NCBI GenBank assembly: GCA_903838355.1
Contig: CAILYC010000018.1
Location: 1-64,000 of the forward strand
DNA length: 64,000 bases
Direction of reading: 5' to 3'
DNA from: an uncultured Burkholderiales bacterium
GTDB lineage: Bacteria > Pseudomonadota > Gammaproteobacteria > Burkholderiales > Burkholderiaceae_C
Part shown: in pieces, positions 24,229-28,221 of the stretch
Layout: every line of letters begins with the position of its first letter
Numbering within the stretch: position 1 is the first letter of the stretch
Position numbers and translations under genes: made by a program
Notes under the pieces: generated by a model
Told to the model about the DNA's origin: nothing
Databases searched by the model: none
The model's input: only the letters and a program-made list of their open reading frames with translations

Positions 24229-24440
24229 GCCCCACGCCACAACATTTGAACCAAATCATGGGAGTGTGCTTCAACATCGCCGCCGATCGGACGCGACTTG
24301 AAGCCTCTGCCGAGCAATGCAGCAACGTTGGGTTGCGGCTGCCCAGGGTGCGCGGGCTGTGCGCGTCAATGGTCCAAGTGACCAATTTTCTTCAACAAGG
24401 AGCATTCATATGTCTAATCGGACGTCCATTTCCGGCCTGA
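24225..24440 (+). CDS. Possible 71-aa leader-like ORF between bchZ and pufB
   Basis: ATG overlaps the bchZ stop (ATGA) and the ORF runs over the pufB start; no recognisable PufQ signature. Confidence 0.25.
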
Positions 24441-24553
24441 CCGACGAAGAAGCTCAGGAGTTCCACCATTACTGGGTCCAAGGATTAGTGGGGTTTGTGG
24501 CTGTCGCTGCAATTGCTCACATGTTGGTCTGGGCATGGCGGCCCTGGTTCTGA
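24410..24553 (+). CDS. pufB: LH1 beta polypeptide
   Basis: [47 protein letters not shown]. Confidence 0.97.
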
Positions 24554-24587
24554 GTTTAGGTAAGTTTTTTTTCTGAGGAGTTTAACC

Positions 24588-24812
24588 ATGTCAAACGTGA
24601 TCAACGAAAGTCATCGATCCATTGCGCAAAAAGAGCGCTTTGGTGACATGCTGATGTTTGTGCCTTGCTTTGTGGTTTTGTTGGCCGTTGCTTTACTGGG
24701 TCAATTGATCGGTTTTCATTGGCGAACTTGGCTGAGTGGCGCTGAGGACTCACACAACATGGTCGTTGGCATCAAGACGGCGGTTTACACCTTTATGTCC
24801 CATATCAATTAG
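24588..24812 (+). CDS. Uncharacterised 74-aa single-TM protein between pufB and pufA; candidate RC-LH1 accessory subunit or divergent LH1-beta paralogue
   Basis: RBS gaggag 8 nt before [77 protein letters not shown]. Confidence 0.8.
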
Positions 24813-24822
24813 GAGAATAGCC

Positions 24823-25029
24823 ATGTGGAGAGTTTGGCGACTGTTTGATCCCTTGAGAGCCATGGTGGTACAGGGAATTTTTCTGTTTACGCTGGCAGCA
24901 ATGATTCACCTCATTTTGCTCAGTACCAACAAATACAACTGGTTTGATGGTCCTCGTGTGAAGCAGCCCGCTGCGGCCTCGGCGCAAAACGCACCCATGC
25001 CCACGCCCGCTGCTGTCACGAAGTCTTGA
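24823..25029 (+). CDS. pufA: LH1 alpha polypeptide
   Basis: [44 protein letters not shown]...; RBS taggag. Confidence 0.97.
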
Positions 25030-25054
25030 ACGACTGAGTTTTTTGAGGGTAGGG

Positions 25055-25103
25055 TGCAGGTACGCAGGCTTGGGTCTTGTCCCCCAAGTCTGCAGTACCT
25101 GCA
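25055..25103 (+). promoter_or_regulatory. Large pufA-pufL intercistronic stem-loop (20 bp with one bulged A)
   Basis: TGCAGGTAC-GCAGGCTTGGG / tcttgtcc / CCCAAGTCTGC-a-GTACCTGCA. Confidence 0.85.
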
Positions 25104-25170
25104 TTTTGTGAGTTTTTGGATTTGAAATTTCGTTGGTTTTTTGCTTGTGCAGGCAAAGGAGGGCTTTAAG

Positions 25171-25995
25171 ATGGCCATGCTGAGTTTTGAGAAAAAATAC
25201 CGAGTCCGCGGAGGCACCCTGATTGGGGGTGACTTGTTTGACTTCTGGGTGGGTCCATTTTTCGTGGGCTTTTTTGGTGTCACAACATTCTTTTTCTCAG
25301 TGCTGGGTACTGCCCTCATCTTGTACGGGGCGGCCATGGGGCCGACTTGGAATCTTTGGCAAATCAGTATCGCACCGCCTGATTTGTCTTATGGGTTGAA
25401 GCTCGCGCCCATGATGAAGGGTGGCTTGTGGCAATGGATCACGGTGTGCGCTTTGGGCGCCTTTGTGTCTTGGGCACTTCGGGAGGTGGAGATTTGTCGC
25501 AAACTCGGCATGGGTCTGCATGTGCCAGTGGCTTATAGCTTTGCGGTTTTTGCGTATTTCACCCTAGAAGTGGTGCGTCCAGTTTTGATGGGAGCTTGGG
25601 GACACGCCTTTCCCTACGGAATTTTTAGTCACTTGGACTGGGTCTCCAACGTGGGCTACCAATACTTGCACTTTCACTACAACCCCGCGCACATGATTGC
25701 GGTTACCTTTTTCTTCACCACCACTTTTGCATTGGCTTTGCACGGCGCTTTGGTGCTCTCGGCCACCAACCCCAAGCCTGGCGACGCGGTCAAGTCTCCT
25801 GAGCATGAGGATACCTTTTTCCGCGACATTGTTGGCTACTCCATTGGGACACTGGGGATTCACCGCTTGGGTTTATTTTTGGCATTGGCGGCAGTTTTCT
25901 TTTCTGCCGTTTGTATTGTCATCAGTGGACCCTTTTGGTCGCGTGGTTGGCCCGAGTGGTGGGGTTGGTGGTTGAACATGCCCATTTGGCACTGA
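25171..25995 (+). CDS. pufL: Photosynthetic reaction center L subunit
   Basis: [36 protein letters not shown]... ATG at 25171. Confidence 0.98.
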
Positions 25996-28097: not shown

Positions 28098-28134
28098 GTC
28101 CGTGTGGTTTGAATGTTGAGATCCTGTCAGAGAA

Positions 28135-28221
28135 CCATGGTAAAGAGCCGTGGTAAAAAGCCGTGGTAATGAGCCATGATAAAGCGCCATGATAAAGCGC
28201 CATGATAAAGCGCCATGGGGG
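28135..28221. repeat. 13-bp tandem repeat (about 6.5 units) downstream of pufC
   Basis: ccatggtaaagag ccgtggtaaaaag ccgtggtaatgag ccatgataaagcg x3 ccatggggg. Confidence 0.9.

What the first reader, a model, noticed from the sequence alone, without database searches (positions are those of the whole stretch)
24588..24812. Uncharacterised 74-aa single-TM protein encoded between pufB and pufA: possible divergent LH1-beta-like or PufX-like RC-LH1 subunit
Seen: the ORF has a strong RBS (gaggag, 8-nt spacer), the same strand, and sits 34 nt after pufB and 10 nt before pufA. Ungapped alignment on the C-terminal WRxW gives beta ...[17 protein letters not shown] vs ...[20 protein letters not shown]. 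Both begin MSN, but the His that ligates BChl in LH1-beta is Gln here, and a ~25-aa tail ([24 protein letters not shown]) is added. Established: pufB and pufA are normally adjacent, and small single-TM subunits (PufX, protein W, protein U/S, gamma) shape LH1 rings in other lineages. Inference: an accessory RC-LH1 subunit, perhaps arisen from pufB duplication and retuned to a structural or quinone-channel role.
Basis: partly seen in the sequence, partly recalled or inferred. Interest (0 to 1): 0.85.

Follow-up and report, generated by a model that had tools for sequence, protein, structure and literature searches.

The report
Pigment-less LH1-beta paralogue in puf operon
Between the two antenna-protein genes of a freshwater photosynthetic bacterium lies a small conserved gene, already listed in the literature as an ORF of unknown function, that proves to be a copy of an antenna subunit which lost its chlorophyll-binding residue but kept an extra tail, so it probably shapes or helps build the core photosystem.

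Summary
The ORF is real: 74 aa, strong RBS, pufB-34 nt-ORF-10 nt-pufA. It is under purifying selection (dN/dS about 0.15-0.22). It occurs between pufB and pufA in 39 of 47 pufL-bearing genomes of a 400-genome Burkholderiales sample, and was not seen there in any other order sampled. It is not new as a gene: it matches ORF2 of Rubrivivax gelatinosus and ORF74 of Roseateles depolymerans by position and description; ORF74 is co-transcribed with pufBA and its function is unknown. New here is what it is. Profile comparison, a tree and gene content indicate a duplicate of a tail-bearing ("long") LH1-beta. The BChl-ligating His was replaced in all 65 distinct proteins (mostly Gln), while the periplasmic tail (PGAE...[13 protein letters not shown]) became its most conserved part. 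ORF74-bearing operons have a tail-less PufB without exception in the loci examined. ORF74-less Burkholderiales have either a long PufB with a similar tail (6 genomes) or a PufQ-like gene upstream of pufB (3 genomes). The most likely role is a pigment-less, beta-like structural or assembly subunit of RC-LH1 that supplies the tail in trans. A PufQ-type role is the main rival. No structure, proteomics or mutant was found.

The parts
24410..24553 (+). pufB, LH1-beta, 47 aa, short form ending WRPWF; BChl-ligand His37
   Evidence: NCBIfam NF040862 1.2e-22, Pfam PF00556 6.6e-11
24575..24580 (+). Shine-Dalgarno gaggag of ORF74, 7-nt spacer
   Evidence: sequence; SD:anti-SD duplex -8.1 kcal/mol, as strong as pufB -7.5 and pufA -7.3 in this window
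24588..24812 (+). ORF74 (ORF2): pigment-less LH1-beta paralogue, 74 aa
   Evidence: conserved family, synteny, dN/dS, profile-profile match to LH1-beta
24645..24719 (+). transmembrane segment, residues 20-44; Gln39 at the position of the BChl-ligating His, invariant Ala35
   Evidence: helix 3-48 in AF2 model, pLDDT 82-84 over residues 21-40
24720..24809 (+). W45-R-x-W motif and C-terminal tail (residues 45-74), the most conserved part; helix 58-73 predicted
   Evidence: majority residue 0.87 for 45-53, 0.77 for 60-74 against 0.37 for 1-19
24823..25029 (+). pufA, LH1-alpha, 68 aa
   Evidence: NCBIfam NF040861 6.7e-18
25050..25108 (+). strong RNA hairpin between pufA and pufL, probably protecting the pufB-ORF74-pufA segment
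   Evidence: -41.1 kcal/mol, z -4.7 for 25028-25120; strong folds after pufA in all 65 loci tested
25171..25995 (+). pufL
   Evidence: tblastn synteny

Best explanation
ORF74 is a paralogue of a long LH1-beta polypeptide. SHOWN by sequence: homology to LH1-beta, loss of the BChl-ligand His, retention of the tail, co-occurrence with a tail-less PufB. REPORTED for Roseateles: co-transcription with pufBA. INFERRED: it inserts like beta (N-in, C-out) and packs against alpha/beta chains at the LH1 ring. Without a BChl ligand it makes a non-pigmented position in or on the ring. Its conserved periplasmic tail makes contacts that in long-beta species are made by every beta's own tail, perhaps to the alpha C-termini and the RC cytochrome. 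Its use would be to shape, seed or leave open the ring during RC-LH1 assembly, probably at fewer than 16 copies per RC. Beta-derived origin about 0.9 likely; structural or assembly role in RC-LH1 about 0.55; a permanent ring subunit about 0.4.
For: hhalign of 65 cleaned ORF74s to long beta: prob 99.2, E 2.4e-19, 66 columns; still 1.9e-16 against long betas of other orders only; segment-wise column shuffles reach score 24 against 95; alpha control prob 12%. Profile hits LH1-beta chains in the PDB, best E 8e-14, and the neighbouring PufB in many genomes. NCBIfam pufB model matches 11 of 31 members weakly, best 3.8e-5. Tree: ORF74 one clade 100/99 inside the beta+ORF74 group 98/98. Every ORF74+ locus examined has a short PufB; ORF74-less, PufQ-less Burkholderiales (G065, G288, G318, G214, G200, G821) have a long PufB with tails such as GIKAAVYNVVPYAFMG. 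G088 is an intermediate: short PufB plus an ORF74 with a long-beta type tail. No His at residue 39. Co-transcribed with pufBA and among the strongest induced loci in Roseateles (PMC10037100).
Against: Beta origin does not prove residence in RC-LH1: the PufQ-like group is also similar to long beta (E 1.7e-14) and to ORF74 (2.5e-14). No PDB chain is a member and no proteomic or mutant evidence was found. The RBS and transcript would allow near-stoichiometric synthesis, which fits a low-copy subunit poorly. The tree has only 76 columns and many unresolved forks, and the AF2 model is weak (pLDDT 65). The tail-split pattern may rest on few evolutionary events.
Confidence: 0.55

Rival explanations
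1. ORF74 is the Burkholderiales functional counterpart of PufQ: a small single-TM protein that steers porphyrin/BChl supply or antenna assembly and is not part of the mature RC-LH1.
For: PufQ or PufQ-like genes of similar size lie between bchZ and pufB in many alpha- and gammaproteobacteria. No ORF74 locus examined has one, and ORF74-less genus g69 has one. hhalign ORF74 against PufQ-like E 2.5e-14, prob 98. PufQ is puf-encoded, single-TM, with a conserved C-terminus, and affects BChl/haem flux (PMC5725709).
Against: Different gene position; the tree puts ORF74 with beta, not PufQ-like, at a 98/98 branch. Canonical PufQ matches weakly (prob 77) and no Pfam PufQ match above cut-off was found in the window's genome. 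Six Burkholderiales have neither gene at the puf locus, so the slot is not obligatory. PufQ's C-terminus is predicted cytoplasmic, beta's is periplasmic.
Confidence: 0.25
2. ORF74 is a stoichiometric outer LH1 subunit comparable to the gamma chain of Blastochloris, one per alpha-beta pair, packing between betas and tuning stability or absorption.
For: Lies inside the pufB-pufA segment ahead of a strong hairpin, with an RBS comparable to pufA and pufB; a beta-like helix could pack on the ring.
Against: The gamma-like chain of Rhodopila has only 22 residues and runs antiparallel to beta (PMC9640540); a third stoichiometric polypeptide is not mentioned in the papers read; median SD strength is somewhat lower than that of pufB and pufA.
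Confidence: 0.12
3. The ORF is mainly a translational spacer or relic duplicate without its own function.
For: Tight spacing before pufA; N-terminus variable.
Against: dN/dS 0.15-0.22, highly conserved C-terminal half, near-constant length, kept in 39 of 47 phototrophs.
Confidence: 0.04

Closest known systems
ORF2 of Rubrivivax gelatinosus / ORF74 of Roseateles depolymerans
   Same: same position directly upstream of pufA and after pufB, about 74 codons, lacks the alpha-type BChl His; ORF74 co-transcribed with pufBA (PMC12817894, PMC10037100)
   Different: nothing evident, but identity was judged from published position and description, not by sequence alignment; the published comparison was with PufA2 only, and the beta origin is not stated in the papers that could be read
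LH1-beta (PufB), long form with C-terminal tail (for example PDB 8z81_B, 7xxf_B; G214 PufB)
   Same: co-linear helix, WRxW motif, PG.(E)G....GVKxA tail
   Different: no BChl-ligating His, no EEAxEFH N-terminal motif, tail far more conserved, separate gene beside a short PufB
PufQ and PufQ-like puf genes
   Same: similar size, single TM, conserved C-terminal helix, non-His at the ligand position in most, mutually exclusive in the loci examined
   Different: upstream of pufB rather than between pufB and pufA; separate in the tree
PufX, protein W, protein U/Y, gamma (accessory RC-LH1 subunits)
   Same: small puf- or LH1-associated TM polypeptides; possible analogous role
   Different: no sequence match found; different gene positions

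Membership tests
LH1-beta (PF00556 / NF040862) | match to curated model above cut-off | tested here: not met
   no LHC hit for the window protein; weak sub-threshold hits in some members
LH1-beta (PF00556 / NF040862) | His that ligates BChl | tested here: not met
   0 of 65 distinct ORF74 proteins
LH1-beta (PF00556 / NF040862) | common ancestry and fold: single TM with WRxW | tested here: met
   hhalign E 2.4e-19 with shuffle controls, tree, W45 invariant
LH1-beta (PF00556 / NF040862) | presence in the LH1 ring paired with alpha | not testable with these tools
   needs MS or cryo-EM
PufQ (PF05398) | match to curated model | tested here: not met
PufQ (PF05398) | gene between bchZ and pufB | tested here: not met
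PufQ (PF05398) | profile similarity | tested here: inconclusive
   PufQ-like prob 98, canonical PufQ prob 77; tree separates them
PufQ (PF05398) | interaction with ferrochelatase / BChl flux | not testable with these tools
   experiment needed
PufX | sequence match and gene after pufM | tested here: not met
   no Pfam PufX hit; gene lies between pufB and pufA
gamma chain of Blastochloris / Rhodopila | sequence similarity and packing between betas | not tested
   sequences not compared

The most novel reading that the evidence does not exclude
In most phototrophic Burkholderiales the LH1-beta polypeptide was split in two by duplication: a tail-less pigment-binding PufB and a pigment-less, tail-bearing ORF74 that acts in trans as a new RC-LH1 subunit, leaving a non-pigmented beta position that sets ring closure and quinone passage.
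Probability: 0.3. Interest if true: 0.82.

Novelty: new variant of a known kind. Interest (0 to 1): 0.6.

Why it matters
How closed or open LH1 rings let quinones through, and which small subunits shape them, has been worked out lineage by lineage (PufX, W, U/Y, gamma); no betaproteobacterial RC-LH1 structure was recognised in these searches. A widespread, strongly transcribed beta paralogue without a chlorophyll ligand is an obvious candidate subunit there. It also gives a 30-year-old unknown ORF an origin and a direct test, and suggests that PufQ-like proteins may be LH1-beta derivatives too.

Tried and rejected
Pfam and NCBIfam scans of the single protein gave only insignificant hits (DUF6512, MgtC). 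Membership in PufQ proper was considered because of the complementary gene content and rejected on position, Pfam and tree, though kept as a functional rival. Counting all order-level hits as ORF74 was wrong: G065, G288, G318, G200 and G214 proved to be long PufBs and G105/G223/G254 plain PufBs, so the count was corrected to 39 of 47. Two long betas had slipped into the first ORF74 alignment; the key comparison was repeated without them, which weakened E from 2e-26 to 2e-19. Nagashima 1994, Suyama 2002 and Kasalicky 2018 are not held, so an earlier remark on similarity to beta cannot be excluded. A fold search was not run because the model is of low confidence and mostly one helix.

Full report
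OBSERVATION. The ORF at 24588-24812 is present as described: 74 aa, ATG, SD gaggag with a 7-nt spacer, 34 nt after pufB and 10 nt before pufA. pufB and pufA score above the NCBIfam cut-offs, whereas the ORF matches no curated family.

CONSERVATION. tblastn found orthologues in 29 of 37 same-genus genomes and in several other families. Loci recovered show the order bchZ-pufB-ORF-pufA-pufL, continuing to pufM and pufC where the locus extends, with length mostly 74-75 aa (71-78) and an RBS. In 400 Burkholderiales genomes pufL occurs in 47. The ORF74 profile matched 49, but inspection showed that five matches are long PufBs and three plain PufBs. The corrected figure is 39 of 47 phototrophs; two further matches (G183, G309) lie beside a pufB in assemblies where no complete pufL was found. 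A few of the 39 were judged by profile score alone. In class- and phylum-level samples no gene was seen between pufB and pufA. Median dN/dS is 0.15-0.22 in three clades, against 0.11-0.14 for pufB. The gene is therefore real and selected.

ALREADY IN THE LITERATURE. PMC12817894 (2025) describes ORF2 of unknown function upstream of pufA in Rubrivivax gelatinosus, citing Nagashima 1994, and compared it only with PufA2. PMC10037100 reports that pufA, pufB and ORF74 of Roseateles depolymerans are co-transcribed as the major 1-kb puf transcript and are the loci most affected by starvation and by loss of the SP70 sigma factor. I take ORF2 and ORF74 to be the same gene from position and size; their sequences were not aligned here.

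WHAT IT IS. A profile of the family retrieves LH1-beta chains from the PDB (best E 8e-14) and often the neighbouring PufB. After removing two long betas that had been misgrouped, hhalign gives E 2.4e-19 to long LH1-beta, 1.9e-16 to long betas from other orders only, 6.9e-9 to short betas, and prob 12% to alpha; 60 segment-wise column shuffles reach a score of at most 24 against 95. In the tree ORF74 is one clade (100/99) within the beta+ORF74 group (98/98), although only 76 columns are available and many forks are open. The position of the BChl-ligating His is Q54/S5/K2/T2/R1/L1 in 65 distinct proteins. Ala35 and Trp45 are invariant. The WR..PGAE segment and the C-terminal helix are the most conserved parts, the N-terminus and a short linker the least. 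AlphaFold predicts a long helix 3-48 and a tail helix 58-73 with modest confidence.

TAIL AND GENE CONTENT. Every ORF74-bearing locus examined has a PufB that ends within about three residues of WRPW. Six ORF74-less Burkholderiales without a PufQ-like gene at the locus (G065, G288, G318, G200, G214, G821) have a PufB with a tail of about 28 aa, for instance G214 ...WRPWLPGSEGYTSMYEGIKAAVYNVVPYAFMG; in most of them it closely resembles the ORF74 tail. The other three ORF74-less genomes (G105, G223, G254) have a short PufB and a PufQ-like gene upstream. G088 looks intermediate: short PufB plus an ORF74 whose tail is of the long-beta type. The simplest reading is duplication of a long beta followed by complementary loss: PufB lost the tail, ORF74 lost the pigment. 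The direction of change is inferred.

HOW IT MAY WORK. The RBS is of similar strength to those of pufA and pufB in the window, and a very stable hairpin follows pufA, as in all 65 loci tested; appreciable synthesis is therefore likely. A beta-like helix with no BChl ligand could occupy or flank a ring position without pigment and contact alpha, beta or the RC cytochrome through its tail. Whether it is a permanent subunit, an assembly factor or a PufQ-type regulator cannot be decided from sequence. PufQ-like proteins are themselves similar to long beta (E 1.7e-14), so beta descent alone does not settle the function.

VERDICT. The accessory-subunit idea is plausible but unproven, and the gene itself was known.

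Noticed in passing
L114:3460-3684, L117:3561-3785, L108, L147:599-847, L129, L103:455-688: A family of PufQ-like ORFs between bchZ and pufB in gammaproteobacteria, Methylobacterium-type alphaproteobacteria and one Burkholderiales genus (annotated 'hypothetical' in Thiodictyon). It matches both canonical PufQ (prob 83-88) and long LH1-beta (E 1.7e-14), suggesting PufQ may descend from LH1-beta.
   Followed up: partly
L154 (G214), L155 (G200), L160 (G065), L158 (G821): LH1-beta polypeptides in some Burkholderiales carry a C-terminal tail of about 28 aa absent from most relatives.
   Followed up: yes
L156:2790-3030 (G088): ORF74 with a long-beta-like tail (GVRKAANSVIPLMFM) beside a short PufB, an apparent intermediate.
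   Followed up: partly
window 28131-28218: 13/26-bp tandem repeat of about 7 copies just downstream of pufC.
   Followed up: no
window 25050-25108: Very stable hairpin between pufA and pufL, -41 kcal/mol for the surrounding 93 nt.
   Followed up: partly
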